From: Ignavibacteria bacterium
GTDB lineage: Bacteria > Bacteroidota > Ignavibacteria > Ignavibacteriales > SURF-24
Length of the DNA: 64,000 bases
Direction of reading: 5' to 3'
Assembly: GCA_025612375.1 (NCBI GenBank)
Contig: JAAXKN010000004.1
Span: 1 to 64,000 of the forward strand
A program made the position numbers and the translations under genes. Positions 2,619 to 57,461 of the stretch are shown here, piece by piece; position 1 is the stretch's first letter; each line of letters starts with the position of its first letter. The notes under the pieces are model-generated. The model ran no database searches. It saw only the letters and a list, made by a program, of their open reading frames with translations, and had not been told where the DNA came from.

Positions 2619-3446
2619 ATGAAAAAAATTATATTATACATCTCTCTTTTTGTTGCTATAGCCGCACAGGGCTGCGATATGGACAGCTTCCTTTTTAACG
2701 ACAAGAAAATCTCAGCATACAAACTGCCCGGAAACAATATCCCCGATTCACTCATTAAGCAGGTGACTTTCATAAGCGGTGGAAACACGCTCTACGGGTA
2801 CTGGGTAAAAGGAGAAAATTACTATAATAGTTTTACTATACTGTACTGCCACGGAAATAAAGAAAACATAGATAACTACTGGGACAGGATTATGTATCTG
2901 CATCAGCTTGGAGTTAATGTCTTTATATTCGACTACAGGGGATTTGGAATGTCTGAAGGCACTTCTTCCGAAGTGGGAATGCATGAGGATGCAGAGGCAG
3001 CATGGAATTTCATTAAAGTAAATTATGCTGTAAAACCCGCATCGCTAATTCTATACGGCTACTCGCTTGGCAATGTGGCTTCAATCTATCTTGCTGCCGA
3101 GGTCGTAAAGCCGATGGCACTTATTGCAGAGGCCCCTTTTGCCTCGGCAAATTCCCTTACACAGGGAAGCCTGGTGCTGGATATCCCAGCGGGGTGGCTT
3201 ACAAAAGGAAAGTTTAATAATGCCGAGGAAATAAAAAAAATCACAACTCCGTTTCTGCTTCTTCATGGAAGTGACGACGACTTTGTACGCTTCCGTGACA
3301 ACGGTCAGGTTGTTTATGACAATGCGCCGGAGCCAAAAACTCTAATTGTTGTCCCGGGGGCGGTTCATACTAACATCCCGGAAAAGATGGGGGTGGAAGA
3401 ATATCTGATGTCTCTAAGAAAATTTTTACATCTGCTTTGGTTATAA
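2619..3446 (+). CDS. Alpha/beta hydrolase lipoprotein
   Basis: A 275-residue serine hydrolase of the alpha/beta fold. The start at 2619 is set by GAGAGGAG at 2603-2610 and by a lipoprotein signal peptide ending AAQGC (Cys near residue 19). Visible fold landmarks are YCHGN (oxyanion region), FDYRGFGMSEG, the nucleophile elbow GYSLGN, a D in GSDDDFV and a final H in GAVHTN, in the order expected for Ser-Asp-His. It resembles the BEM46/FrsA-like group of small hydrolases, and the substrate is unknown. It sits directly behind the preceding lipoprotein gene and is probably co-transcribed with it. Confidence 0.85.
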   Translation: MKKIILYISLFVAIAAQGCDMDSFLFNDKKISAYKLPGNNIPDSLIKQVTFISGGNTLYGYWVKGENYYNSFTILYCHGNKENIDNYWDRIMYLHQLGVNVFIFDYRGFGMSEGTSSEVGMHEDAEAAWNFIKVNYAVKPASLILYGYSLGNVASIYLAAEVVKPMALIAEAPFASANSLTQGSLVLDIPAGWLTKGKFNNAEEIKKITTPFLLLHGSDDDFVRFRDNGQVVYDNAPEPKTLIVVPGAVHTNIPEKMGVEEYLMSLRKFLHLLWL

Positions 3447-3508
3447 GTCCGGGCACTATTATTTTTGCTTTGCGGAATAATTAACATTTATACAATACAG
3501 GGAGTTAA

Positions 3509-5647
3509 ATGAAAAATCAGTTTAGAATGAATAGGCTTATGCTTACTGCAGCCTTATGTCTATTCATATGCTTTGGCGGTTTACGTGCCCAGGCCACCTT
3601 TGATGCCGATACAGTAAAGGCGCAGAAGTATGATACAGGCAAAATGTGGGCCTTTGAGTTCCCGCCTTTTGAATACCTGAAACAGGTATATAACTTTAAT
3701 GCCTCGCAGGAATGGTTTGATGACGTACGGCTTTCAGCCCTGCGCATACCGGGCTGCACGGCATCCTTTGTTTCTGAAGACGGTCTGGTTATGACAAATA
3801 ACCACTGCGCCCGCGGAATAAGAAGAATGGTCCAGAAAGAAGGCGAAGACCTTGCAAATACAGCCTTTATCGCAAGGACGCTTGAAGAGGAAAGAAAAAT
3901 CCCCAACTATTCGGCAGAACAATTAATCTATCTTAAGGACGTTACAAAAGAGGTCCAGACTGCAATCAGCTCAGGCAAGACTGAAAAGGAAAAGATCGCC
4001 TTAAGAGACGCAAAGCTTAAAGTGTTAAAAGATGAGTATGAAAAAGAAACCAAACTTAAGTGCGACGTTGTTTCTTATTACAACGGAAGCCTCTTCTTCG
4101 TTCAGGGTTTTAAGACTTATAATGACGTAAGACTCGTTTTTCAGCCGGAGGAAAATATTGCATATTTCGGAGGGGATCCGGACAACTTTACTTACCCGCG
4201 CTACAACCTTGACTGCACTTTCCTCAGGATATACGGAGATGACGGAAAGCCGGTCAAGTCTGAACACTTTTTCAAGTGGAGCGCAAATGGCGCACAGCCA
4301 GGAGAACTCGTCTTTACAGTCGGAAACCCCGGGTCAACCAACCGCCTGAGGACTGTTGCACAGCTCGAATATTTAAGGGACATTCAGTTCAGGAACAGCG
4401 CTTTTCTGGCCGACAATCTCTACAGCCGCCTAGACCAGCTGAAGAGCATTAACCCGCAGCAGGCCTCTGAATATGAAAACCTGAGGCTTGGTTTCAGCAA
4501 CGGGCAGAAAAATACCTCAAACACCTATAAGGCTCTTAATGATCCATATCTGATGGCCCGTAAAAAGGATTTTGAAAAACGCGCACGTGAGTTCGTTGCG
4601 TCCGACCCTCAGCTGGAAAAACAGTACGGCCACGTATGGAAGACAATTGAAACAACACGCGGGGAGCTGAGAAGTATTGATACGAAAATAGCAGCACTCT
4701 CAACAAACCCCACCTACTTCTCACGTTATCTTACAATTGCAAACGCGCTTGTAACTCAGGCAAAGCAGAGCGCTCTTCCTGAGGATCAGAAAGATCCGGA
4801 AACAAAGACCGAACGCTACCAGCAGATGCTGAAGAACATTTATCCTGATAACTTTGATCCTATTCTTGAACAGGCAAAACTTGAAATCAATATAGATTAC
4901 ATCATAATGAACCTGGGCAAGGATCACCCGTGGGTAAAGAAATTCTTCAGCGGATCGACATCTAAGGAGATAGCTCAGAACCTGATCTCAAAATCGGCAT
5001 TTAAGGACAAGAAAACCGTAATGGCTCTTTTCCAGAAAACGCCGGAAGAAATCCTTTCCCTTAATGATCCTTTTATCAGCTATTATGCAGAGACCTACGG
5101 TGACCTGGTAAAGCTGAAAAAAGAGCAGAAGGAAACTCTGGACACAGAAAACATTGCGTTTGGGCTCTTAGGACAGATAATCTACAAGATGTACGGCACC
5201 TCAGTTACGCCTGATGCAAACAGGACATTAAGGCTTTCAGACGGCCTCTTAAAAGGCTACAATTATAACGGCACTACTGCACAGGTTAAAACAACTTTCT
5301 TCGGCCTTTACGACAAGTATTTCGGCTTTGAAGGAAAGTATCCTTTTAATCTTCCTTCAAGGTGGCAGAATGTTCCGAAAGACCTGGATTTGAATACGCC
5401 CTTTAATTTTGTCTCGACAAATGACATCGTTGGCGGCAACTCGGGCAGCGCTGTAATAAACAAGAATGCCGAGGTTATAGGCCTGGCCTTCGACGGAAAC
5501 ATCGAGAGCCTGCAGGGTAACTTTATTTATCTGCCGACTTACAACAGGACTGTAGCCGTGGATTCCAAAGGAATGTATGAGGCTATAAAGAAGGTCTATA
5601 AAAACGACCGTCTGGCAGACGAACTAAAAGAAGGAAAGATCCAATAG
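3509..5647 (+). CDS. S46-family dipeptidyl-peptidase, DPP7-like
   Basis: A 712-residue exported serine peptidase of MEROPS family S46, which removes dipeptides from peptide N-termini in the periplasm. A signal peptide covers about residues 1-28. The chymotrypsin-fold triad is visible as H99 (TNNHCARG), D235 (RYNLDCTF) and S645 (GGNSGSAV), with an alpha-helical lid between the halves. Eighteen residues after the serine comes Gly663 (AFDGN). In characterised members Gly here goes with DPP7 (hydrophobic P1) and Arg with DPP11 (Asp/Glu P1), so DPP7-like specificity is inferred. The length matches the family. An AGGGAG ribosome-binding site precedes the ATG. It is probably a source of dipeptides for an amino-acid-using organism. 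Confidence 0.93.
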   Translation: MKNQFRMNRLMLTAALCLFICFGGLRAQATFDADTVKAQKYDTGKMWAFEFPPFEYLKQVYNFNASQEWFDDVRLSALRIPGCTASFVSEDGLVMTNNHCARGIRRMVQKEGEDLANTAFIARTLEEERKIPNYSAEQLIYLKDVTKEVQTAISSGKTEKEKIALRDAKLKVLKDEYEKETKLKCDVVSYYNGSLFFVQGFKTYNDVRLVFQPEENIAYFGGDPDNFTYPRYNLDCTFLRIYGDDGKPVKSEHFFKWSANGAQPGELVFTVGNPGSTNRLRTVAQLEYLRDIQFRNSAFLADNLYSRLDQLKSINPQQASEYENLRLGFSNGQKNTSNTYKALNDPYLMARKKDFEKRAREFVASDPQLEKQYGHVWKTIETTRGELRSIDTKIAALSTNPTYFSRYLTIANALVTQAKQSALPEDQKDPETKTERYQQMLKNIYPDNFDPILEQAKLEINIDYIIMNLGKDHPWVKKFFSGSTSKEIAQNLISKSAFKDKKTVMALFQKTPEEILSLNDPFISYYAETYGDLVKLKKEQKETLDTENIAFGLLGQIIYKMYGTSVTPDANRTLRLSDGLLKGYNYNGTTAQVKTTFFGLYDKYFGFEGKYPFNLPSRWQNVPKDLDLNTPFNFVSTNDIVGGNSGSAVINKNAEVIGLAFDGNIESLQGNFIYLPTYNRTVAVDSKGMYEAIKKVYKNDRLADELKEGKIQ

Positions 5648-5710
5648 TGTTACTTCAGGAACTGCCTTTTAAAAGGAAGGTCTAGAAGAAGTTGTCTGTA
5701 AAAACAAAGA

Positions 5711-5745
5711 AGCCGGCCTGAATATTATTTTTACCCGGGCCGGCT
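5711..5745. terminator. Hairpin terminator between convergent genes
   Basis: A stem AGCCGGCC / GGCCGGCT with a 19-base A/T-rich loop in the 117-base gap between the convergent peptidase (+) and propeller protein (-). It could serve both strands. Confidence 0.65.
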
Positions 5746-5764
5746 ATTTGGCAGTAAAAAGTGT

Positions 5765-8158
5765 TTATTTCAGTAATACAAATTTCTTTGTGCTTATATT
5801 GCCCGAGGCTTCAAGCCTGTAGAGATACATTCCGCTCGGCATGCTGCTTCCGTCAAAAGCCGCCTCGTGCTCGCCTGCAGTAAGCCTTCCGTTAACAAGC
5901 GTTGCCACCTCACTGCCCAGAAGGTTATATACTTTTAAGGTGACGAATGATTCTTTGGGAATGGAATACCTGATTTTTGTCGTTGGATTAAACGGGTTCG
6001 GGTAGTTCTGCTCGAGAGCAAAAACTGCCGGAGATGTCCCTGGCACTCTGACACCCGTGATGCTGATTGTAACGGCATTACTGAAGTCAGACTCAACTTC
6101 CTTTGTAAAAGCCCTTACTTTGTACTGATAACTGCCGGATGCTTTTGCAGTTGTATCTGTGTATGAAGTCTCATTCGGGCCAAGAGTTGCTATCACTATA
6201 AAATCAGAATCAAATTTTCTTTCAATTATAAATCCAGATTCATTGTTTGTTTTATCCTTCCATGTCAGTTTCACTCTCGGTACTTCCACAGACGCCTCCA
6301 GGCTGTCAGGGCTGTAGAGTTTTGTAGTGAAATTCCAGGTAGCGGAATTTGGCCCCGCTCCGGCAGCATTCTTACCCCTTACCTGCCAGTAGTACTTTGC
6401 CCCGTGCTTGAGCCCTTTTACCTCTTTGCTTATATCCGTCAGGCTGGAATCAGAGTAGAATAATGTGCTGAACTGATCATCTTCACTTATACTAAGCCTG
6501 TAAGAGGCTGCATTAAGAGTGCTGTTCCATGAAAGTGTGGCATTTTCATCCACATTTACCGCGTTATTCTGCGGAGACTTAAGCTCAGGAGAAAGAGGTA
6601 ATGAGAGCACCGTAAAAGTCCTTACTTCCGACCATGGCCCCGTGCCTCCTGTTATTATGGCCTGAACCTTCCAGTAGCACTTCATATTTGTAGAGAGATT
6701 TGATAAAGGAAGCACTGTGTCCTTTACAGAAGGCTCGTTTATTAAAAGGGTCTTAAAGCTGGTGTCGGTTGCAACTTTCAGTGCGTAGCCTTCGGCTAAT
6801 TCTGTTTTTCTCCATTTCAGGACCAGCTTAGATGGATCAGTATACGCTTCGTTTAAGGGAGCCAGCAACGCAGGAGCTTTTAATACAATGATGCTGAGGT
6901 TTGACGGACTTACCCCGTAAAGGGATGGATCCGAAACTGATTCTACTTTTATTCTGCACAAGTCGGACGGGTTTACCGGTACGGTAACATTCTCAGAGCC
7001 GTCGTTTGGAGTATCAGAGGCAAGTGTAATGGGGTAGGTCAGTCCCTCATCAAGCGAAAGCTTTATATTTACATTCCCGCTGACACTCTTGCTGTTCCAG
7101 ACTACTTTCTGCATGCTGCCTGAGGCCCATTTTGTGCCCCCTTCGGGCCCTGTGACAATTAAGTTCTTAATTACTATGCCGTTTTCATTATATATAAAGA
7201 GCCCTTTAGTGTAGGTGCCGATCCATTTGTTGTTGTACTTATCAACTGCAATTGATACAATACAGGTGTCGTTAACCGGGGAATTAAGGGAGTCAAATGC
7301 CGTCCAGGTCTCTGTCCCGTTTACCGATTCAAATTTCCAGAGCCCGATGTTGTTTGTTCCCACCCATTTTGCACCGCTCTGATCCAGGCCCACGCCCAGA
7401 ACCCATTTATGTTCAAGCTTGCGGGTGATCTTGGGGAAGTAGCTGCCCCAGCCCCATTTGGTACCGTCAAAGGATTCAAGGCCGCCATTCCACGTCCCGG
7501 CCCACAGTACACCTTTGGGGTCGAATCGGATATTAAGGAATGAGTTGCATGCTGTATAAGAATTTGTTTTCGTGAAAAAGGTCCAGTTTACGCCGTCAAA
7601 TTTTCCCAGACCCCCGCCGCTCGTCCCAATCCATTTTATGTTATTGTTATCCACAGCTACAGTATTGATATAGTCTACCAGGCCGCTTGTGTTGGCGGCA
7701 TTAAAAAGCCTCCAGTTAAAGCCGTCAAACATGGCTACTCCGCCTTCCTTGGTGCCGATCCAGATAAAGCCGTCTTTATCAACGGCTACGCCCCTTATGC
7801 GGTTGTCGGGAAGGTATGAGTTTGATTTTGTAAAAACTGTCCAGCTCTTGCCGTCAAATTTGGCAAGACCGCTGTCAGTGCCCACCCACTTGTTCCCCCT
7901 GGAATCGATCGCCACGCTGCGGACTATGTTGTTAGGCAGGCCCGAATTAAGTTTATTATACGATTTCCAGTTTGTTCCATCGAACCTTCCAAGGCCTACG
8001 CCGGTAGCTACCCATTTTATATCCTGATCGTCAATAACAATCTGGTATACCGTATTATTCGGCAGAAGTGATGTTGCACTGTTGTAGTTTTTCCAGTACT
8101 CCTGTCCAAATGACAGTGAATATATTAATAAGACAAAAAGTAAAGTGTGTTTATTCAT
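5765..8158 (-). CDS. T9SS-exported propeller / fibronectin type III protein
   Basis: A 797-residue surface or secreted protein. A signal peptide (about 1-18, ending SFGQ) is followed by six to seven tandem repeats of about 45 residues (about 20-330) with the two-component-regulator-propeller pattern: I.D..G..W.GT..GL..FDG..W. Next come a beta-sandwich region and three fibronectin type III-like modules (about 430-690). A type A sorting domain closes it (ALEQNYPNPFNPTTKIRYSI ... SMPSGMYLYRL ... KKFVLLK). Unlike hybrid two-component sensors, there is no membrane helix, kinase or regulator domain, so the propeller is used here as an extracellular binding or scaffold module. The ligand is unknown. 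Confidence 0.85.
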   Translation of the reverse strand: MNKHTLLFVLLIYSLSFGQEYWKNYNSATSLLPNNTVYQIVIDDQDIKWVATGVGLGRFDGTNWKSYNKLNSGLPNNIVRSVAIDSRGNKWVGTDSGLAKFDGKSWTVFTKSNSYLPDNRIRGVAVDKDGFIWIGTKEGGVAMFDGFNWRLFNAANTSGLVDYINTVAVDNNNIKWIGTSGGGLGKFDGVNWTFFTKTNSYTACNSFLNIRFDPKGVLWAGTWNGGLESFDGTKWGWGSYFPKITRKLEHKWVLGVGLDQSGAKWVGTNNIGLWKFESVNGTETWTAFDSLNSPVNDTCIVSIAVDKYNNKWIGTYTKGLFIYNENGIVIKNLIVTGPEGGTKWASGSMQKVVWNSKSVSGNVNIKLSLDEGLTYPITLASDTPNDGSENVTVPVNPSDLCRIKVESVSDPSLYGVSPSNLSIIVLKAPALLAPLNEAYTDPSKLVLKWRKTELAEGYALKVATDTSFKTLLINEPSVKDTVLPLSNLSTNMKCYWKVQAIITGGTGPWSEVRTFTVLSLPLSPELKSPQNNAVNVDENATLSWNSTLNAASYRLSISEDDQFSTLFYSDSSLTDISKEVKGLKHGAKYYWQVRGKNAAGAGPNSATWNFTTKLYSPDSLEASVEVPRVKLTWKDKTNNESGFIIERKFDSDFIVIATLGPNETSYTDTTAKASGSYQYKVRAFTKEVESDFSNAVTISITGVRVPGTSPAVFALEQNYPNPFNPTTKIRYSIPKESFVTLKVYNLLGSEVATLVNGRLTAGEHEAAFDGSSMPSGMYLYRLEASGNISTKKFVLLK

Positions 8159-47107: not shown

Positions 47108-48745
47108 TCACCTCCTCAGTTGAGCCTTGCTTTTCAAATAAGAATATGTCATGGAAACACCCACCAGTGCAGCTCCAAGCACAAGAAATGACATCATCTT
47201 GTATGTGGCTTCAGAACTTGAAATGCCCTGCAGGAACACATAAAGAATTGTTGCGGCAAATGTAGTCAGTGACATCCATCTGTATTTCCTTGAGTTCAGC
47301 ACCTTCCCCAGGTAATAATAAATAAGAGCGACAGCTATCCACGACAGTCCTACAAAACCAGCGGGGATGTTGCTGTAAAGGGCATATGGAATAATCAGGA
47401 GTGCAATCAGAAGATAGGAATTTCTCATCATTTCAGTCTTCAACTCAAGGCGCTCTTTCTGCCAGTTCATCAGCCGTGCACTTAAAAGCGATACAACGCC
47501 GAAGCTTATGCTTGTAAGCTCAATCCTCTGATCAAAAATCAGAAATGAGATTGTGAGCAGCAGATATATGATGAAATTTGCTACAACAATAAACCTCGAG
47601 CGGAACCATATTGCCATTGAAACAACAAGAAGGCTCTGCCAGCATAATGGAATGAAGGCGGCAGGGAATTGCAGGTAGCTGATTATTGAAAGGCTGAGTG
47701 CAAGGTATCCTGTCATGGCATAGATGAAAGTAAGGTGCTTATGGTTCAGCCGTAAATACAAAATTGCCGAGAGCGTTATAAATACAGCGGCGGCAACTAA
47801 GCTGAGAGAGGCAAAATACCCTGTAGGCGAAATTGTAAGAGTGAACAATCCGAAACTAAGCAGAACGTTTAAGGTTGAACTGGAATATCTTAATCCCTCA
47901 GCCGGCTCTTTATTGGTTCCAAGATAGAAAGCAGAAGTATGAATAAGCATATAAAGAAGCAAGATAGAGGAATAAAAAGGATCAACATTTCTGAAATGGG
48001 AACTGCCCGTTAAAACAGGATTACCGATAAGCCAGTCAAGATAAGAGAAATAACTCATTAAGACAGAGGCAATTAACAGCTTAAACCAGTTGTTCTTAAG
48101 TGAGAGGTAAACTCCGAGAACCGAAAGAAGCGCAATACCTCCCATGATCAAGGCATCATTATCCGATACAAGCAGAGTTATATATCCTATAAGCAGGCTC
48201 AAACCAGAAAGGTAGGCCGAGTTTCTCTTTACAGCTATTGCCAGGCTTGATAAAAAGACAATGGCAAGCAGAAACAGTTCCGGCCAAATGCTGTTTAGTG
48301 CAATGCCTGTGGAAAAGAAATGCAGCCTAAGAACTGAAAAACAAAAAATAATTATGGCTCCTGAGACCAGATGAACATTTATATGCGGCAGTACTTTGTT
48401 GAATAATTTTGATGTGAAATAAAGTGCTGCTGCAATAATGAAACCTAAAACTGAAGGAAGCAGAGGGCTGACCTCCTTATATGGGAATGCCAGAAGGAAA
48501 ATGACCCCGATGATAAAGAGCAGTACACCCACTTTTGCAAAAATGTATTCTCCTATTTTGTACTCCAGTGCATCATTGCTGCTTTCTTTTTCACTGCTGA
48601 TCCTGTTGATGGCGTCAATCTCATTGTTTACTTTGTTTTCAAAAATCAGATTGACCTTGAATTCAAGCGAGGTAATTCTCTCATCCATCTTCTGAAGGCA
48701 TGAGCCGATGTCTTCATTTAAAAATTTGTTTGCAGTTGTATCCAT
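47108..48745 (-). CDS. Polytopic membrane protein (DUF2339-like)
   Basis: A 545-residue protein with a soluble N-terminal coiled-coil-like region (about 1-60, MDERITSLEFKVNLIFE) followed by about sixteen closely spaced hydrophobic helices to the C-terminus. An EYIFAKVGVLLFIIGVIFLLAF start to the helical part and a simple helix-after-helix layout resemble the DUF2339 group. No transport or catalytic motif is seen. It begins 50 bases downstream of the multihaem cytochrome gene on the same strand and could be part of that transcription unit. Function unknown. Confidence 0.65.
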   Translation of the reverse strand: MDTTANKFLNEDIGSCLQKMDERITSLEFKVNLIFENKVNNEIDAINRISSEKESSNDALEYKIGEYIFAKVGVLLFIIGVIFLLAFPYKEVSPLLPSVLGFIIAAALYFTSKLFNKVLPHINVHLVSGAIIIFCFSVLRLHFFSTGIALNSIWPELFLLAIVFLSSLAIAVKRNSAYLSGLSLLIGYITLLVSDNDALIMGGIALLSVLGVYLSLKNNWFKLLIASVLMSYFSYLDWLIGNPVLTGSSHFRNVDPFYSSILLLYMLIHTSAFYLGTNKEPAEGLRYSSSTLNVLLSFGLFTLTISPTGYFASLSLVAAAVFITLSAILYLRLNHKHLTFIYAMTGYLALSLSIISYLQFPAAFIPLCWQSLLVVSMAIWFRSRFIVVANFIIYLLLTISFLIFDQRIELTSISFGVVSLLSARLMNWQKERLELKTEMMRNSYLLIALLIIPYALYSNIPAGFVGLSWIAVALIYYYLGKVLNSRKYRWMSLTTFAATILYVFLQGISSSEATYKMMSFLVLGAALVGVSMTYSYLKSKAQLRR

Positions 48746-48795
48746 TTTAATACTCCTTTAAAATAGTTTTTGCCGAACCGGAGTCAAGTTTTAGT

Positions 48796-50265
48796 TCAGG
48801 AATCAGATCCGTCTTTCTTTTCGATCTTTTTTATATAGAAGAACAATGTTACGGCAAGTGAACTCATTATGGCAATTGATATACCCAAGCCAATCCTCCG
48901 GAAATAATATTCTTTAATTTTATCATGTGCTTCTTCGATTACTTCTTTTGTGGTGCTAAGTCCTTTATCCTTTACAACTCCCGTGAATTTATTCAGATCA
49001 AAAGAATGCACCATGGTTTTAGCCTCCATTTCAGCTTGTCCGGCATCCCTGAGCTTAAAAGCCGCTTCCGAGACCTCCATTCCCTTCTGCTCAGCTTCCT
49101 CAATAAGCCTCCGTGCTCTTACAGCTGAACTGCTCAGGCTGTCCAGGAGATGCCTCATTAAACCGGCGGTCTTAAAGCCTTTCACGTTTCTATTGTCGCT
49201 GTGGCACTTTGAGCAGGCGGCTTCTTTATCCGTTCCAAGCAGGCTTACCGAGGCTGCCTTTACGAGGTGGTTGCCGTGACAGGTTTCACATTCGGGATAA
49301 TTATTTTTATCAAAGGCTTTTTTGTGCGGGCTTGACGCAAATAACTCTGCGTTCAGCGTGTGGCAGAGGCCGCAGACTTTTGATATTGAAGTGACTCCTG
49401 GCGGTGTGGCGGCATGGTTACCGTGACAGTCGTTGCAGGAAGGAGCGCCGCTAACCTTATTTACAAGCAGTGCCTGACCGTGGACTCCTTCAGAATATTT
49501 TTCGAACTGATCTGTCGGGATCTTGTAAGCACTCATGTATTCTTTATTGCTGTGGCACTCTGCACACGTTGAGGGGAGATTTGTTTTATAAACTTTTGAA
49601 GTAGGTACGCCGGGCGCCTGAATGTCGTGATAGCCGTGGCAGTCGGCACAATCGGCAGCTTTCGGGTCATGCATCAGATTGAGCCTCCCGTGGCGGCTCG
49701 TTATATATTTCTGATACTGGTCTGTCGGCAGTGCCGGATTGTAGGACCGCATATAAACTACATTGCTGTGGCACCGGGCACAGGTCTTTGGAACATTTAA
49801 TGAATAGGCGGGAGACAGGGGACTTTTTACATCTCTTACACCGTGAGCCCCATGGCATGTGGTGCACTGAAGGATCCTTTCTTTTCCTGACAGGGACAGC
49901 TTGCCGTGGACGCTTGCCTCAAGCAGCCTGAACTGGTCTGTGCGGAGTGCCGATCCGAATGATCTCATTTTCTTTTCATCGGAGTGACACCTTATGCAGA
50001 CCTCAGTTTTTACGTCTCCCTTGGGAACGCCAATAAAGCCTGCGGACGCGTTCATTGCCTGTTCCATGTCCTCTGAGCGGCTGTTGCCTCCATGGCATCC
50101 GGAGCATGAGATTCCCTTACTGAAATGCACGTCGCCCGTAAAGATTTTTGAGGCGTTATCACCAAGTGAATTGTGGCAGTTATAGCATTCATCTGCCTTT
50201 GCAAAAACAACGGATGAAAAGATAATTGTGACGAAAAATGCGGTTAACGTTTTCATGACATCCAT
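48796..50265 (-). CDS. Undecahaem c-type cytochrome, C-terminally anchored
   Basis: A 489-residue multihaem cytochrome. A signal peptide (ending VVFA) is followed by 11 CXXCH motifs: CYNCH, CSGCH, CIRCH, CTTCH, CARCH, CADCH, CAECH, CNDCH, CGLCH, CETCH, CSKCH. HG and HGNH residues between them can serve as distal ligands. A haem-free helical stretch (about 370-455) leads to one transmembrane helix ([16 protein letters not shown]) and a lysine-rich cytoplasmic tail, so the haems face the periplasm. Its start overlaps the cytochrome b gene by 13 bases. It probably takes electrons from the Rieske/b module in place of cytochrome c1 or f. Confidence 0.93.
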
Positions 50266-51332
50266 CCGAGAATTGTTAAAACAATTATGATGGAGACAGC
50301 CAGTATACCTATATAATTTATCAGCCGGTTTTTTCTTCCCCGCGAGCTTTTAACGTCCCAGAACGGCACCAAAAGCCATAACACACCGGCAATTGAAAAC
50401 ATGACTATTCCGAAGACTTCGCCATCCATAAAAATGATTTTTGCAGGCAGGTACTTCAGTATCTGAAACATAAAGAGGAAGTACCATTCAGGTCGTATTC
50501 CCGCCGGAGCAGGGGCAAAGAGCTCGGCTTTTTCACCTAAGTCAGCCGGGAAAAATACTGCCAGTACGGCTAGTACATTCAGCACAAGCAGCCATAGGAG
50601 TAAATCACGCAGCATAAAATTCGGGAAGAAAGGCATTGTTTTCTTTTCACCTTGAGGGGCTTTCTCAATTCCCATCGGTTCACTCATTCCCTGGCGCTGA
50701 ACCAGAACGAGATGAAACAAGAGAAGGAACGTGAATATCCCGGGAAAGAGAGCAACATGAAAGCCGAAGAATCTGGATAGTGTGGCATCTGTTACATCGT
50801 CTCCTCCCCTTAAGAATATCTTCAGAGGCTCTCCTATAACGGGCACTGAGCCTACTATATCGGTCCCCACTTTTGTTGCAAAGAATGCGAGTTTGTTCCA
50901 GGGCAGCAGGTATCCGCTGAAACCGAAGGCTAAAGAGATGAAAAACAAAACTGTTCCTGTAACCCAGGTTAACTCCCTCGGGCGGCGGTAGGACTTCTCA
51001 AAGTATACGCTGAACATATGAATAAATACAGAAAGTATGAAAAGGTTGGCAGCCCAGGAGTGAATTGATCTTATGAGCCAGCCGAATTCAACTTTTGACA
51101 TAATGAATTTTATGCTTTCAAATGCAATGTCGGCGCTTCCTTTATAATAAAAGAGCAGGAGAATTCCTGTAAATACCTGAATGATGAAAAGGAAAAGTGA
51201 TACTCCCCCGAAGTAATACCAGATTGAATTGCGGTGTATGGGAACGGTTTTTTTTCTGAAGAAGTGCACTATTTCCCCGGTGTTAAATCTTTCATCCAGC
51301 CAGCCGCCAATTTTTGCAGTCATGTTCTTCAT
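50253..51332 (-). CDS. Cytochrome b6-type quinol oxidoreductase subunit
   Basis: A 359-residue membrane protein with about seven or eight helices, the b subunit of a cytochrome bc-type complex. Four haem-ligating histidines are H91 and H105 (13 residues between) and H192 and H207 (14 between); the 13/14 spacing is that of cytochrome b6 rather than mitochondrial cytochrome b. The quinol-site motif PEWY is at 281-284, in a region corresponding to subunit IV, so b6 and subunit IV appear fused. It starts 5 bases after the Rieske stop and overlaps the 11-haem cytochrome gene: one operon. Confidence 0.95.
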
Positions 51333-51337
51333 AATGT

Positions 51338-51841
51338 TTATGCATTTTTAATGATTATTATTTCATTATTTTTTAGCATGGTCCTGTATTCATCAAGAGG
51401 GCGGGGAGGAGGCCCGGAAATGTTTCTCCCCGTAAGGTCGTACTTCCCGTTATGGCAGGCGCACCAGATTGCATTCATATCGCTTCTGTACTGAACTGTA
51501 CAGTTTAAGTGCGTGCAGGAAGCTGAGAAGGCCTTAAATGTGTCTTCTTTTGTTCTTATTACAATTACCGGCTTATTGCCAAAGCGTATGATCTTGCCTG
51601 AGTCGAGCGGATAATCCTTTATCATGCCTGCGCTCTGGCTGTTGACTTCAACCTCTCTTTGCCTTGGGGGCTTTAAGTATTCCATCAGGGGATAAAGTAC
51701 CGATGCGGCAAAACCAAGCATGCCAAGTCCGAGCAGCCTTTTGAGAAATGAGCGCCTGGATTGCGGCTTTGCCTGAATGAATCTGCTCTTATCCTCAAGC
51801 TTTTCGGATAATATTTCAGTTGTCTCAGTTAGATTTCTCAT
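51338..51841 (-). CDS. Rieske [2Fe-2S] protein of a bc-type complex
   Basis: A 167-residue Rieske subunit. A twin-arginine-type signal/anchor ([11 protein letters not shown], then a hydrophobic helix about 35-55) suggests Tat export of the folded cluster protein, as for other Rieske subunits. The cluster motifs are C109-T-H111-L-N-C114 and C127-A-C129-H130: ligands Cys109, His111, Cys127, His130, with Cys114-Cys129 as the disulfide. It passes electrons from quinol at the Qo site of cytochrome b to the c-type haems. It is the first gene of the operon, preceded by a sigma-54-like promoter and two palindromes. Confidence 0.95.
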
Positions 51842-51877
51842 GGTATTTGATCCGGTTTTGAATCTTTATTCCGTGAG

Positions 51878-51892
51878 GCTAAAATCATACCA
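51878..51892 (-). promoter_or_regulatory. Candidate sigma-54 (-24/-12) promoter of the bc operon
   Basis: The minus strand reads TGGTATGATTTTAGC, with GG and GC exactly 10 bases apart as required for sigma-54, and agreement with TGGCACG-N4-TTGC at T, G, G, A, G, T, G and C. The predicted start site (about 51867) lies some 26 bases before the Rieske ATG. The neighbouring upstream gene encodes a sigma-54 activator, which raises the likelihood. Confidence 0.6.
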
Positions 51893-51952
51893 TGATTAAA
51901 AGCGGCTGTTTTCAGCTGTTTTGAAGGGGTAGTGATAAATCGGCCGGGGAAA

Positions 51953-51972
51953 GTGTGAAATCTATTTCACAC
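51953..51972. promoter_or_regulatory. Palindromic activator site 1 upstream of the bc operon
   Basis: A perfect 8-bp inverted repeat, GTGTGAAA-TCTA-TTTCACAC. Its centre is about 95 bases upstream of the predicted sigma-54 transcription start, a normal enhancer position for an NtrC-type activator. Confidence 0.65.
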
Positions 51973-52037
51973 AAAGCATTTTTTGCGGGTCATGTATGTT
52001 ACAGAATCCTTCTATCTTACTTAAAAACAGGGTAATT

Positions 52038-52057
52038 GTGTGAAATCAGTTTTACAC
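52038..52057. promoter_or_regulatory. Palindromic activator site 2 upstream of the bc operon
   Basis: GTGTGAAA-TCAG-TTTTACAC has the same spacing as site 1 and one mismatch. Centre-to-centre distance from site 1 is 85 bp, about eight DNA turns, so both face the same side of the helix. An additional small inverted pair ACACT-TTTT-AGTGT (52054-52067) overlaps its distal arm. Confidence 0.6.
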
Positions 52058-52074
52058 TTTTTAGTGTGAGGGGG

Positions 52075-53511
52075 CTATTTCCTCCATTTGTCAGGATCGA
52101 AACCGTAAATGTTTAACAGCCTGTGAATATTTCTGCGCGTCATACCGGCCTCAAGCGCCATATGGGTCACGTTGCCGTTATATTTTCTTAGGAGATAGAT
52201 GAGGTATTTTTTCTCCACTTCATCAATTGCTTTTTGCTTTGCCTCAGGGAGTTTCAAATTATCGAACGATAATCCTTTTAGGTCTTCATTTATCAGCTTC
52301 GGCGGCAGATCTGCAAGAGTAATTACGTCGCCTTTTGACATAATTACCATCCTTTCAATTACATTCTCCAGCTCGCGGATGTTGCCGGGCCAGGCGTAGC
52401 TTTCAAGTATTTTAATTACTTCATCACTAAAGCCTGAAATGTTCTTACCAGCTGTTTTGATGAATTTCTTCAGGAAGTGGCCGGCCAGGAGCGCAATGTC
52501 CTCTTTCCTCTGCCTCAAGGGAGGCAGGTGAATGTTTATGACATTAAGCCTGTAATACAGGTCGCTTCTAAGCTGCCCGAGCTCTGCAGCCCTGTCGAAG
52601 TCGTGGTTGGTAGCTGAAATTATCCTGAAGTTCACACTTATCAGCTCGTTGCCTCCCAGTCTTCTTACAGCCCGTTCCTGAAGAACCCTCAGGAGTTTTA
52701 CCTGGAGGTTCAATGGCAGCTCGCAGACTTCATCTAAAAAGAATGTACCTTCGTTGGCATATTCAAGCAGTCCCATTTTTCTTGAAGCAGCTCCCGTAAA
52801 GGCGCCTTTTTCATAGCCGAATAATTCTGCCTCAAATAAATGCTCCGGAAAGGCTCCGCAGTTTACCGGAACAAAAGGCTTTGTTTTCCTGCTGCTGTGG
52901 GCGTGAATGCTTCTTGCAATAAGCTCTTTGCCTGTTCCGCTTTCTCCTGTAACGAGTACGTTGACGTCAGTCTTTGAAATATTCTCTATCATTTCGAAGA
53001 TCTTCAGCATCTCTTCACTTCGGCCCACAATGTTATCGAACTGGAACTTGTCATCCAGCTGCCTGATTAAATTATTTCTTTCCTTGAAGAATTTTTTCTG
53101 CCTGAGCCCTTTTTCAATTACAATCTTCAGCTTTTCAGTGTCAACTGGCTTTTCGAGGAAATCGAAGGCACCCAGCTGCATGGCCTGCACAGCGCGTTCC
53201 ACGGTACCGTATGCTGTAAAAATTATTATGGGTGTGCCGGGAGAGATTTTATTTGCTTCCTTAATTATTTCAAAGCCGTTCATCTCATCCATAAGAAGGT
53301 CGCAGAATATAAGGTCGAACTCTTCCTGCTGAAGGATTTTAAGGGCTGAGGGGCCGTCGCTGAAAGCCAGGGGGCTGAAGCCAAGAGCAGACAATATGCT
53401 TGAAAACCCGCTCAGCATGTCCGGCTCGTCATCAATAACAAGTATCCGGGAAGGCTTTTTAGTTAATTTGCCGGCCCCGGGCTCTTTACTAATTTCAGGT
53501 AATCTGTTCAT
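52075..53511 (-). CDS. NtrC-family sigma-54-dependent response regulator
   Basis: A 478-residue regulator. The receiver domain (about 20-135) has the acidic pair DDEP, phospho-acceptor D71 (FCDLLMDEMNG), T (FTAYG) and K (LEKPVD). The AAA+ sigma-54 interaction domain (about 160-395) has Walker A TGESGTGKE, the sigma-54 contact loop GAFTGA, and LFLDEV-type Walker B (TFFLDEVCELP). A Fis-type HTH (about 430-475; VTHMALEAGMTRRNIHRLL) ends it. Its start overlaps the stop of the sensor kinase gene (ATGA). It probably binds the two palindromes downstream of its own gene and activates the bc operon. Confidence 0.95.
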   Translation of the reverse strand: MNRLPEISKEPGAGKLTKKPSRILVIDDEPDMLSGFSSILSALGFSPLAFSDGPSALKILQQEEFDLIFCDLLMDEMNGFEIIKEANKISPGTPIIIFTAYGTVERAVQAMQLGAFDFLEKPVDTEKLKIVIEKGLRQKKFFKERNNLIRQLDDKFQFDNIVGRSEEMLKIFEMIENISKTDVNVLVTGESGTGKELIARSIHAHSSRKTKPFVPVNCGAFPEHLFEAELFGYEKGAFTGAASRKMGLLEYANEGTFFLDEVCELPLNLQVKLLRVLQERAVRRLGGNELISVNFRIISATNHDFDRAAELGQLRSDLYYRLNVINIHLPPLRQRKEDIALLAGHFLKKFIKTAGKNISGFSDEVIKILESYAWPGNIRELENVIERMVIMSKGDVITLADLPPKLINEDLKGLSFDNLKLPEAKQKAIDEVEKKYLIYLLRKYNGNVTHMALEAGMTRRNIHRLLNIYGFDPDKWRK

Positions 53512-55274
53512 TTTATAGATCCCCTAATGTTATTCCCGGCTGCCCCGGGCAGCGTTATGTTAAATATTGTACTTTTCCCGGGCTCCGATTTAACGGTGAT
53601 TTTTCCGTCGTGCCGCAAAATAATTGCTTTTACTATGGAAAGGCCCAGTCCTGTACCGTTTGAGTTCTGCTTTGTAGTAAAGAAAGCTGTAAATATTTTG
53701 GGAAGGTTTTCTTCAGCTATGCCCGTTCCATTGTCCTCAATGCTGATGACGGCGTTCAATGTTCCATTGTTATTTTCAGAGCCAAGCCTAATTGTTATCT
53801 CGCCGTGGCTGTCGACGGCGTCGATAGCGTTATTAAGCAGATTCATGAATACCTGCTCCATCTGTCTTGAATCTGCGTATACAACCGGGATATCGCCTTC
53901 AAAGTTTCTGTTAATTCTGATGCGCTTGGAGCGGAAGCGGTGCCCAAGAAGGTAGAGGCATTCTTCAATGACGCTTTTTATATCAATGGGTTCCGGATAA
54001 AAGGTCATTCTCTGTGAATAGCTTAAAAGGCTTTTTGTATAATTGCTTATGCGCTCAGCCTGCTTTCTGATTATTTTAAGCGTGGGCAAAATGCCATCAG
54101 GGGAGTTATTGCTTAAGATAATGCCGTCAACGTGGGCTGCAATAATTCCCGTGGGTGTATTTATTTCATGGGCAACAGAATCGACCAGCTCGCCGATTGA
54201 AGCAAGCTTTGAGGCCTGGTTTAACTGCTCCTGGTAAGCCTGTATCTGCTCAAGGTTCCTCCTGGCTTCTTCGGCTCTTATTCTCCTGGAATTTATCACG
54301 TAAATGAGGCTGCTGAAGAGCAGCAGGAGTCCAAGTATTACAAAGCCGATGATAAAGAAAATTTTGAACTTTTCTCTTAAGCTTTCAGTCACATGTGTAA
54401 CCAGTGTGGATATTACGAGTACCCATTTCTGGTTCCCGATTTTAACGGGGAAATAAGCCATAATTTTATCCGGCTCGTTTTCAACTACTGAGTATTCACC
54501 AAAGGATGGACCGGAAGCCTTTACAATTGACTGCTGAACAGAGAATGACTTGTGGCATTGTGAACACCCGGGAGTTGTGTTGTTAATGGAGCGGAGGAGC
54601 ATCTCTTTATGCAGGGGATGATAGATTAGTCTGCCCATGCCGTCAATGATCCAGGCAAAGTCGTTTTTGCTCAGTTTTAACGGCCTTATAAACTGATCTA
54701 CCAGCCCGTTGAAGTTAATCAGGTATCCCAGGTATCCTATTGTATCTCCCCCGGCCGGGGAGGCTTTATTCAGTATGGGGACAACAATCTGGAAGTAGAG
54801 CTTTGGATCAGGCTTTGTCTTTTCATTTGAGCTTACGGCTGAAATAAAATAGTCTCCGCTTCTGCCCGAGGAAACTGCCTGCCTGGTGTAGTAAATTTCC
54901 CAGGCGTCGACCGGTTCTCCTGTAAAGCAGCAGACCTTAAGGTTTTTATCTGTAACGAAGACTGAGCGTACAATCTCCGAATCGTAGGCTGCGGGGAGCT
55001 GTTTTATAAAGGAAAGGGAATGGCTGTTAACATCTTTTATGCCCGGATAATTGGATAACAGCCTTATATCTCTGACAAGGTGGTGAATAAGGTACGTAAT
55101 TCCCTGGGCAGTTGATTTTGTCATTTCTAATTGCTGGAATTGATGATCTTTTTTGATATCGTCCAGGGTGTTTTTATATATTCCAACTATCAGGGATGCA
55201 AAAAGAACTACAAAGACTACCGGTCCTAACACCAACCAGTATTTTTTATGCCTGCCGTAGCTGAGCCTTTGCAT
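53508..55274 (-). CDS. Sensor histidine kinase with a c-type haem sensor domain
   Basis: A 588-residue kinase from the ATG at 55274 (a TTG at 55286 is also possible). TM1 (about 12-33) and TM2 (about 310-335) enclose an extracytoplasmic double-Cache-like domain of about 270 residues, which carries CSQCH (54552-54566), the motif for covalent haem c attachment, in GCSQCHKSFS near its membrane-proximal end. The cytoplasmic part has the H-box SVAHEINTPTGI, N-box (FMNLLNNAIDAV), G1 (EDNGTGIAEENL) and G2 (GTGLGLSIVK). It is probably a redox- or gas-sensing kinase. It is translationally coupled to the sigma-54 regulator, its obvious partner. Confidence 0.92.
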   Translation of the reverse strand: MQRLSYGRHKKYWLVLGPVVFVVLFASLIVGIYKNTLDDIKKDHQFQQLEMTKSTAQGITYLIHHLVRDIRLLSNYPGIKDVNSHSLSFIKQLPAAYDSEIVRSVFVTDKNLKVCCFTGEPVDAWEIYYTRQAVSSGRSGDYFISAVSSNEKTKPDPKLYFQIVVPILNKASPAGGDTIGYLGYLINFNGLVDQFIRPLKLSKNDFAWIIDGMGRLIYHPLHKEMLLRSINNTTPGCSQCHKSFSVQQSIVKASGPSFGEYSVVENEPDKIMAYFPVKIGNQKWVLVISTLVTHVTESLREKFKIFFIIGFVILGLLLLFSSLIYVINSRRIRAEEARRNLEQIQAYQEQLNQASKLASIGELVDSVAHEINTPTGIIAAHVDGIILSNNSPDGILPTLKIIRKQAERISNYTKSLLSYSQRMTFYPEPIDIKSVIEECLYLLGHRFRSKRIRINRNFEGDIPVVYADSRQMEQVFMNLLNNAIDAVDSHGEITIRLGSENNNGTLNAVISIEDNGTGIAEENLPKIFTAFFTTKQNSNGTGLGLSIVKAIILRHDGKITVKSEPGKSTIFNITLPGAAGNNIRGSIK

Positions 55275-55412
55275 TTGCTGCCGCAATATATTTGCCGCAA
55301 TATAATATGGGGAAACTTAAAGCGCTACGAAAAAATTAGGATATTAGGTCCATAAATCGGGTATGAACAGTCTCAACAGTCTGCAAAGGCGGCCATTTCT
55401 GAAGAATTCCTC

Positions 55413-57461
55413 TTAGTTTTCAACTGCTTCATGCCTGAAGGCAGGAAGTGTGAAAGTAAAAGTAGTACCTTTTCCCATGCGGCTTTCCACGCTAAGCTTT
55501 CCGCCGTTTTTTTCTGTAAGTTCCCTGCACAGAACCAGACCCAGTCCTGAACCGGTTTCTCCGTGAGTCCCCTTGGTACTCTGTGCAGAGTCTATGTCGA
55601 ATATTTTTCTTGCAGCATCCTCTTGCATTCCGATGCCTGAATCTGCAACTGAAATCTCCAGAAATTCCGGTGTGGATTTTGAACTTACACGGATATAGCC
55701 GCCCACGCCTGTAAACTTGACGGCATTTGAAATAAGATTCCTCAGTATCGTTTCTACCATGTTTTGATCGGCATATGCCGCCTCAGAAACCTCAACCGCA
55801 TTATCTATTGTAATTGATTTGTTGAGGGCTGCTGAGATGAAAAGGCCCTTGATACTTTCCACTTCATCATGGATATTCAGCTTCCCAAATTCCGGGTTAA
55901 GCCTCCCGCTCTGAAGTAAAGACCACTCGAGAAGATTGTTTACAAGATTAAATATTTTTTTTGCCGACTGGTTGATTATTCCGGCATATTCGGAAACTTC
56001 TTCCTTAGTGAGGCTGGCTGAATTTTTTGCCAGTTCTTCTGAAATTCCCAGGAATCCGAAAAACGGGCTTCTCAGGTCATGAGCTAAAATGGAAAAGAAC
56101 TTATCCTTAGTGGCATTCGAAACTTCAAGCTCATCATTCAGCCTTTTTAACTCTTCATGGTGGCGGCTGATCTCACGGTTTTTTTCTTCGAGGAGCAGAT
56201 TGGTTTTCTTCTTTGACCTGTAGGCCGTAAATGTTCCAAGAGCAATAACGGTAACCAGAATGAAGCCCACAATCAGAGAGTTGCGGAGGGTTCTTTGAAT
56301 TACATTATCTTTCTGCAGAAGAGCAATTTCCTTGTCCTTCTTTTCCGATTTGTACTGCATATCCATCTGTGCAAGCTTCTGCAGCGTCTGCGCCTTGTTA
56401 AGGCTGTCTTTATAATTATAATAAAGGTCCTGGATCTCGAAGGCTTTCTTAAAATTGCCCAATTTTGCATAGGCGGTACTGAGATGGAAATATGTCCTGA
56501 TAAGTGCGCGTTTATCCTTAATCTCCTGCCTTATCTTAAAAGCCTTCAGAAAGTGGTCCAGCGCCAAAGGGTATTTCCCCTGAACTATGTAGATTTCCCC
56601 AAGGCTAGTCAGGGAAGCGGCAATGCCGCGCTTTTCCCCCAGATCTTTCCTCATCTGCAGCGCTTTTAAGAAGTAGCTTTCAGCCAGGTCATATTTCTCC
56701 AGCTGCCTGTATACCATGCCCAGGTTCTGGTAAGAGCCGGCAACTCCGATTTTATCATCAAGCTCCCTCTTAACCTTCAGTGCAAGCCTGTGGTATTTCA
56801 GAGATTCATTAAATTTCTTGGAGTCAAAATTTATCAGTCCCATCAGTTCATATGAATTTGCCATCCCGTATTTTTCATCTATTTTTTCTCTTATCCTCAT
56901 TGCCTTAGAGCAGTATTCCAGGGCTTTCGGGTAATCTTTCAGTATATAATGAAGTGTTGCTACAAGGCTGTATGAAACCGAAAGCTCTTTTGTGTCTGAA
57001 TTCTCTTCTGCTATTTTTATCGCCTGATAATAATTTTTCATGGCCATATCATAATTGCCAAGGTGCTCGAGAATTCCGCCAATGGAATTAAGTGACAGGG
57101 CAATTCCATGCTTATCGCCAGAGGATTTTCTTATTTCAAGGGCTTTCCTGTGATATTCCATTGCAGAATTGAAATCGGAAAGATTTACGTACATTTCTCC
57201 CAGGTTTGCATAACTGACGGCCTTGCCTTTTGCATAATTTAATTCTTCCGACATTTTCAGAGCTTGGGAGGCGGTCTGAATCCCTTTTTGCGGGTCGGCA
57301 TTCTGGTAATAATCCGCAAGGGCGAGCATAACATCTATTTTTTCAGTACCTGATTTCGTTTTAATTAAGCCTTCGAGGCTATCCGGTCTGACTTGTGCAG
57401 ACATGGGGCTGCCAGTAAAGCTTAATACAGCCATGACTAATAAGGTTAGAGTAGGTTTCAT
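55413..57461 (-). CDS. TPR-repeat sensor histidine kinase
   Basis: A 682-residue kinase. A signal peptide (ending MSAQ) is followed by seven or eight TPR units in the periplasm (about 60-370; many A..Y...L.I....G.K...A.S...LG.I signatures). Then come one transmembrane helix (LIVGFILVTVIALGTFTAY, about 400-420), a coiled coil, the HisKA domain (FFSILAHDLRSPFFGF, the H-box) and a HATPase (NLISNAVKF, DSGIGM, GSGLGLVLC). TPR kinases of this layout are common in Bacteroidetes, with partners often encoded elsewhere. No regulator gene is adjacent on its own. It could feed the neighbouring sigma-54 regulator or be unrelated. Confidence 0.93.
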   Translation of the reverse strand: MKPTLTLLVMAVLSFTGSPMSAQVRPDSLEGLIKTKSGTEKIDVMLALADYYQNADPQKGIQTASQALKMSEELNYAKGKAVSYANLGEMYVNLSDFNSAMEYHRKALEIRKSSGDKHGIALSLNSIGGILEHLGNYDMAMKNYYQAIKIAEENSDTKELSVSYSLVATLHYILKDYPKALEYCSKAMRIREKIDEKYGMANSYELMGLINFDSKKFNESLKYHRLALKVKRELDDKIGVAGSYQNLGMVYRQLEKYDLAESYFLKALQMRKDLGEKRGIAASLTSLGEIYIVQGKYPLALDHFLKAFKIRQEIKDKRALIRTYFHLSTAYAKLGNFKKAFEIQDLYYNYKDSLNKAQTLQKLAQMDMQYKSEKKDKEIALLQKDNVIQRTLRNSLIVGFILVTVIALGTFTAYRSKKKTNLLLEEKNREISRHHEELKRLNDELEVSNATKDKFFSILAHDLRSPFFGFLGISEELAKNSASLTKEEVSEYAGIINQSAKKIFNLVNNLLEWSLLQSGRLNPEFGKLNIHDEVESIKGLFISAALNKSITIDNAVEVSEAAYADQNMVETILRNLISNAVKFTGVGGYIRVSSKSTPEFLEISVADSGIGMQEDAARKIFDIDSAQSTKGTHGETGSGLGLVLCRELTEKNGGKLSVESRMGKGTTFTFTLPAFRHEAVEN

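What the first reader, a model, noticed from the sequence alone, without database searches (positions are those of the whole stretch)
51842..52074. Sigma-54 promoter with two phased palindromes controlling a cytochrome bc operon
The 233-base gap between a sigma-54 activator gene and the Rieske gene holds TGGTATG-N4-TAGC (-24/-12, exact GG-N10-GC spacing) and two GTGTGAAA-N4-TTTCACAC-type palindromes (one perfect, one with a single mismatch). The palindromes are 85 bp apart, about eight helical turns, and centred about 95 and 180 bp upstream of the predicted start. This is textbook enhancer geometry for an NtrC-type activator. I am not aware of a bc-type quinol oxidoreductase placed under a dedicated sigma-54 circuit in this lineage. 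The sites are visible; the binding is inferred.
Basis: partly seen in the sequence, partly recalled or inferred. Interest (0 to 1): 0.78.

Follow-up and report, generated by a model that had tools for sequence, protein, structure and literature searches.

The report
Heme-kinase sigma-54 switch for cytochrome bc
A stretch of DNA in front of a respiratory (cytochrome bc) operon carries a conserved on-switch, almost certainly worked by the neighbouring regulator pair, whose sensor appears to carry a covalently bound heme, so the cell probably makes this respiratory complex only when a redox or gas signal outside the membrane calls for it.

Summary
The gap holds a perfect and a one-mismatch GTGTGAAA-N4-TTTCACAC palindrome and a GG-N10-GC element; no other place in the 5.2-Mb genome matches the palindrome within one mismatch, and rpoN is present. 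Orthologues of the adjacent NtrC-type regulator occur in 16 of 164 genomes searched in the order, all carrying the same bc operon. In these genomes (plus one with only a regulator fragment) the gap no longer aligns, except that the palindrome and the TGGYAY-N7-G promoter persist: both in 12 of 17 upstream regions, against 1 of 41 in relatives with the operon but no regulator. The regulator association changed at least 5 times on the cytochrome b tree, and the sites follow it. In three genomes where regulator and operon are separated, the sites stay with the operon. The 85-bp spacing of two palindromes is not conserved. Binding, phosphotransfer, heme attachment and transcription start are inferred. 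New variant of a known kind.

The parts
53508..55286 (-). Sensor histidine kinase, 592 aa (TTG start): two TM helices, periplasmic double-Cache domain with CSQCH (C241, C244, H245) and HPLHKEM (H223, H226, M229), HisKA-HATPase
   Evidence: Pfam dCache_1 1e-13, HATPase_c 7e-28; CxxCH and HPxHxxM invariant in 14 of 14 orthologues; AlphaFold2 pLDDT 86; double-Cache fold match Z 16-19
52075..53511 (-). NtrC-type response regulator, 478 aa; overlaps the kinase gene by 4 nt
   Evidence: Pfam Response_reg 2e-28, Sigma54_activat 2e-69, HTH_8 1e-5; D71 invariant and GAFTGA motif conserved in 17 orthologues
52038..52057 (.). Distal palindrome GTGTGAAATCAGTTTTACAC (one mismatch), centre about -181
51953..51972 (.). 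Proximal palindrome GTGTGAAATCTATTTCACAC (perfect), centre about -96; predicted enhancer bound by the response regulator
   Evidence: conserved with the regulator gene
51878..51892 (-). -24/-12 element TGGTATGATTTTAGC; predicted start near 51866
   Evidence: conserved in relatives as TGGYAY-N7-G
51338..51841 (-). Rieske iron-sulfur protein, first gene of the controlled operon
   Evidence: Pfam Rieske 3e-12
50253..51332 (-). Cytochrome b (N- and C-terminal parts in one protein)
   Evidence: Pfam Cytochrome_B 7e-52 and Cytochrom_B_C 5e-10
48796..50265 (-). Membrane-anchored multiheme cytochrome c with 11 CxxCH; overlaps the cytochrome b gene
   Evidence: Pfam multiheme families; CxxCH count
47108..48745 (-). 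DUF2339 membrane protein, probable last gene of the operon; linked to the bc operon in many relatives
   Evidence: Pfam DUF2339 5e-12; linkage in relatives

Best explanation
This is the control region of a dedicated two-component, sigma-54 circuit. [quoted passage not shown] The phosphorylated regulator oligomerises on the TGTGA-N8-TCACA palindromes about 96 and 181 bp upstream and, by DNA looping and its AAA+ GAFTGA module, opens sigma-54 RNA polymerase at TGGTATGATTTTAGC, transcribing the Rieske - cytochrome b - multiheme cytochrome c - DUF2339 operon. Shown here: the sites, gene order, domain content, and conservation of the sites together with the regulator gene. Inferred: binding, phosphotransfer, heme attachment, start site, and the nature of the signal (redox state or a diatomic gas such as NO).
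For: Sites real and, within one mismatch, unique in the genome; rpoN present. Regulator orthologues (52-63% identity; the best other regulators are at or below 47%) in 16 of 164 order genomes including this one, each also with a cytochrome b orthologue; kinase directly upstream in 13 of 14 relative loci with enough sequence, G068 being the exception. Regions upstream of the operon: -24/-12 within 150 nt of the start in 15 of 17 RR+ versus 2 of 41 RR- regions (p 6e-10), palindrome in 13 of 17 versus 2 of 41 (p 7e-8; 10 of 17 versus 1 of 41 with the window's own 8-bp spacer only), both in 12 of 17 versus 1 of 41 (p 8e-8); window excluded. The gaps do not otherwise align with the window's; the best local match is the -24 element, and several of the others are palindrome pieces. 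Regulator presence changed at least 5 times on the cytochrome b tree. In G048, G092 and G068 the regulator and operon are separated and the sites remain with the operon. CxxCH and HPxHxxM invariant in 14 kinases.
Against: G160 has the regulator but no recognisable site; G028 has both sites but no regulator orthologue was found (it nests among regulator-bearing genomes). The -12 box is weak in many relatives (final C in only 8 of 17). The palindrome is degenerate in G082, G116 and G153, and its spacer is 9 in G143, G137 and G153; the 9-bp option was added after looking. Genomes are related, so the Fisher p-values overstate independence. The operon's absence from the four own-genus and own-family relatives searched allows horizontal arrival. 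No experiment.
Confidence: 0.86

Rival explanations
1. The palindromes are bound by a CRP/FNR-type protein and the operon is under a sigma-70 promoter.
For: TGTGA...TCACA resembles CRP half-sites (own knowledge; no tool result supports this).
Against: Spacer is 8 or 9, not 6; allowing only 6 gives 2 of 17 versus 0 of 41. Sites follow the NtrC-type gene across the tree. Only two sites in the genome at up to 1 mismatch, unlike a global regulator. No sigma-70-like site on the operon strand, while a -24/-12 element is conserved.
Confidence: 0.06
2. The palindromes are transcription terminators or RNA hairpins at the end of the kinase-regulator operon, and the -24/-12 is a chance match.
For: They lie just downstream of the regulator stop codon in the window and in many relatives.
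Against: No T-run, and the terminator scan found none. In G048, G092 and G068 the palindrome lies in front of the bc operon, away from the regulator (inserted genes in the first two, another contig in the third). The -24/-12 is conserved in 15 of 17.
Confidence: 0.03
3. A sigma-54 circuit exists but the kinase senses a small molecule through its Cache pocket, and the CxxCH carries no heme or serves only structure.
For: Double-Cache domains usually bind small organic ligands; the structural neighbours are amino-acid chemoreceptors such as PctA and PctB. Heme was not observed.
Against: CxxCH and nearby His/Met are among the few invariant positions of a sensor domain otherwise at 31-42% identity; the motif recurs in a second sensor group of the order; c-type heme in Cache sensors is established (PMC12889525).
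Confidence: 0.2

Closest known systems
NtrC-family two-component systems acting at sigma-54 promoters (for example Myxococcus NmpRSTU, PMC11841059)
   Same: Response regulator of the NtrC type; two upstream binding sites with an inverted-repeat consensus (NmpR: GCGCA-N5-TGCGC) at a sigma-54 promoter; in NmpRSTU the sensor binds heme and a respiratory oxidase operon is a target.
   Different: Different palindrome; here the kinase has a periplasmic double-Cache with a c-type heme motif rather than a protoglobin, and the target is a Rieske/cytochrome b operon next door.
Geobacter sulfurreducens CbcBA with its sigma-54 regulator BccR (Joshi et al. 2021; the regulator's role is recalled, paper not held)
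   Same: Inner-membrane b/c-type quinol oxidoreductase induced when better acceptors run out (PMC12307469), under a dedicated sigma-54 activator (recalled).
   Different: No relationship between the proteins was tested here; the window operon has a Rieske protein and full cytochrome b.
sCache_heme sensors (DUF3365/Tll0287, PF11845; GSU0582, GSU0935; PMC12889525)
   Same: Extracytoplasmic Cache sensor with CXXCH; signalling members behave as NO sensors; in both, the motif sits on a short helix inserted between strands.
   Different: The window kinase matches dCache_1 and not PF11845; it is a double Cache with the motif in the membrane-proximal module.

Membership tests
NtrC-type sigma-54 activator (response regulator) | Receiver with phospho-Asp, AAA+ sigma-54 interaction domain with GAFTGA, Fis-type HTH | tested here: met
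   Pfam domains over cut-off; D71 invariant and GAFTGA conserved among 17 orthologues
Sigma-54 promoter | GG-N10-GC at -24/-12, close to TGGCACG-N4-TTGC, in a genome with rpoN | tested here: met
   TGGTATGATTTTAGC, shuffle p 0.010; rpoN E 1e-60; -24/-12 found in 15 of 17 RR+ regions
Sigma-54 promoter | Transcription start 12 bp downstream, dependent on rpoN and on an activator | not testable with these tools
   No expression data
NtrC-type enhancer | Dyad sites about 80-250 bp upstream that accompany the activator gene | tested here: met
   Centres -96 and -181; relatives about -87 to -255; 13 of 17 versus 2 of 41
CRP/FNR-type site | TGTGA-N6-TCACA | tested here: not met
   Spacer 8 or 9
sCache_heme (PF11845) | Match to the Tll0287-like profile | tested here: not met
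   Four kinase sensors of this family match dCache_1, none PF11845 even at E up to 5
Cache sensor with c-type heme | Extracytoplasmic Cache fold with conserved CXXCH | tested here: met
   Fold; CXXCH invariant in 14 of 14
Cache sensor with c-type heme | Covalent heme observed | not testable with these tools
   Needs purified protein
Rieske/cytochrome b (bc-type) complex | Rieske protein and cytochrome b with N- and C-terminal domains in one operon with cytochrome c | tested here: met
   Pfam hits; same gene order in many relatives

The most novel reading that the evidence does not exclude
The kinase belongs to an undescribed family of double-Cache sensors with a covalent c-type heme, arisen separately from sCache_heme, which reads redox or NO in the periplasm and, through its own sigma-54 regulator, switches a Rieske/cytochrome b complex on or off: a respiratory chain that senses the state it controls.
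Probability: 0.5. Interest if true: 0.75.

Novelty: new variant of a known kind. Interest (0 to 1): 0.62.

Why it matters
bc-type complexes are usually treated as constitutive or under global regulators. Here a dedicated sensor and activator travel with the complex, are repeatedly gained or lost with it, and the sensor itself appears to be a heme protein. That gives a concrete, testable prediction of when these largely uncultured bacteria use this quinol oxidoreductase, a binding motif and promoter model for annotation, and a lead to a c-heme sensor class beyond the recently described sCache_heme family.

Tried and rejected
Genome-wide regulon search: no further sites within 1 mismatch; of three 2-mismatch hits inspected, two lie inside genes and the third has no gene start within 700 bp, so no wider regulon is claimed. 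Phasing of two palindromes as a conserved feature: rejected, seen only in the window. Terminator and CRP readings: rejected as above. A named-organism search with the regulator alignment returned only generic regulators at or below 46% identity, so the lineage name (Ignavibacteria) was not confirmed here; relatives are known only as same order. A PDB sequence search with the sensor profile gave nothing significant. Known heme-c Cache structures (5B82, 3B47) did not appear in the listed fold matches, which excludes nothing. G093/G094 carry a 46% regulator beside the bc operon (in G094 with a different kinase lacking CxxCH); no similar sites were recognised there.

Full report
WHAT IS THERE. On the minus strand the order is kinase (53508-55286), response regulator (52075-53511, overlapping by 4 nt), a 233-bp gap, then Rieske protein, cytochrome b, an 11-CxxCH cytochrome c and a DUF2339 membrane protein. 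The gap contains the two palindromes and the -24/-12 element at the stated places. Within one mismatch the palindrome occurs nowhere else in the 5.2-Mb assembly, and the genome has one rpoN. The -24/-12 has exact GG-N10-GC spacing; the published consensus of 186 elements is mrNrYTGGCACG-N4-TTGCWNNw (quoted in PMC2725144).

CONSERVATION TEST. Cytochrome b orthologues (55-79%) are found in 61 of 164 order genomes including this one, but not in the four own-genus and own-family relatives searched. Regulator orthologues (52-63%, clearly apart from other regulators at or below 47%) are found in 16 of the 164, including this genome, all with the cytochrome b, plus a fragment at a contig edge in G048; a sample of 395 genomes of the phylum added no other. 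The kinase lies directly upstream in 13 of 14 relative loci with enough sequence. I compared the region upstream of the operon's first gene in 17 RR+ cases (one genome contributes two loci, and in one of those the genes following the regulator include no recognised Rieske or cytochrome b gene) with 41 regions from relatives having the operon without this regulator. The scoring model for the palindrome was the window's own GTGTGA-N8-TCACAC; the window was left out of the counts. Palindrome (at least 10 of 12): 10 of 17 versus 1 of 41 with spacer 8 only, 13 of 17 versus 2 of 41 with spacer 8 or 9. The -24/-12 within 150 nt of the start: 15 of 17 versus 2 of 41, both of the latter from G028. Both elements: 12 of 17 versus 1 of 41. 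The one exception, G028, sits inside a regulator-bearing clade of the cytochrome b tree and has a good palindrome and TGGTATACAAATTGC; its regulator is lost, diverged or unassembled. G160 has the regulator but no site. The gaps are otherwise unalignable with the window's: global alignment scores are near shuffled values, and the best local match is the -24 element (ATGGTATGATTT in G022), with pieces of the palindrome among the others.

INDEPENDENCE. On a maximum-likelihood cytochrome b tree, regulator presence needs 7 changes, at least 5 forced by well-supported branches. Sites and regulator therefore appear and disappear together several times. In G048 and G092 genes on the opposite strand lie between regulator and operon, and in G068 they are on different contigs; in all three the palindrome and -24/-12 lie before the operon, not after the regulator. 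This rules against a terminator and ties the sites to operon control.

GEOMETRY. Palindrome centres lie about 87 to 255 bp upstream of the predicted start. Only the window has two full palindromes 85 bp apart. G061, G022, G092 and G048 have one palindrome with a GTGKGACAT half-site 21-23 bp upstream. Helical phasing of two sites is thus not a conserved property.

THE SENSOR. The kinase sensor domain is dCache_1 by sequence and double-Cache by predicted structure (pLDDT 86; Z 16-19 to double-Cache sensors). Within a domain at 31-42% identity to the window's, H223, P224, H226, M229, C241, C244, H245 and F248 are invariant in 14 sequences. The CxxCH lies on a short helix (239-244) between two strands of the membrane-proximal module, reminiscent of the insertion described for sCache_heme, which is a different family (PF11845) whose signalling members have NO-sensor properties (PMC12889525). 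A second group of larger proteins in the order has the same H..H/HPEM...CxxCHxSF signature, so a double-Cache heme-c group may exist. Heme attachment is inferred.

MECHANISM. Signal at the heme, then kinase, regulator phosphorylation at D71, oligomerisation on the palindromes, and activation of sigma-54 polymerase at 51878-51892. Six relatives encode a receiver-only protein after the site, lacking the usual acidic pair; the window lacks it. The sign of control (which state activates) cannot be told.

LIMITS. Sequences are related, so p-values are guides. The 9-bp spacer was allowed after looking. The lineage name was not verified. Start site, binding and signal are untested. Literature was searched only in the open library; Geobacter BccR is from memory.

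Noticed in passing
L125 4193-4555 and L124 4179-4547 (reversed orientation), also L147, L139, L114, L144: A receiver-only protein of about 125 aa lies between the regulator and the downstream operon genes in six relatives; it lacks the usual acidic pair, so may be a phosphate sink or pseudo-receiver. Absent in the window.
   Followed up: partly
L244, L245, L246, L247: Larger sensor proteins in the order carry the same double-Cache signature (H..H/HPEM ... CxxCHxSF), suggesting a wider double-Cache heme-c group.
   Followed up: partly
L157 (reversed) 3255-6133, L159 2348-5196, L160 2769-5630: The next nearest regulator group (45-46%) is paired with kinases (HAMP type in the two scanned) that also have one CxxCH (weak PF11845-like match in one), beside multi-CxxCH genes on the opposite strand: possibly a parallel heme-kinase/sigma-54 system.
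   Followed up: partly
L152 1413-4796: G094 has a different kinase without CxxCH plus a 46% regulator plus a small receiver-like gene directly before the bc operon, as if the regulator pair had been exchanged.
   Followed up: partly
L141 and L114 (G144): Two copies of the regulator in one genome, each followed by its own palindrome and -24/-12: one before the bc operon, the other before a receiver, a C554-like cytochrome and other genes.
   Followed up: partly
window 47108-51841: The cytochrome b orthologue is absent from the four own-genus and own-family relatives searched but common in two other families of the order, so the operon may have arrived by transfer.
   Followed up: no
window 55413-57461: TPR-repeat histidine kinase directly upstream of the heme-type kinase, same strand; relation unknown.
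   Followed up: no
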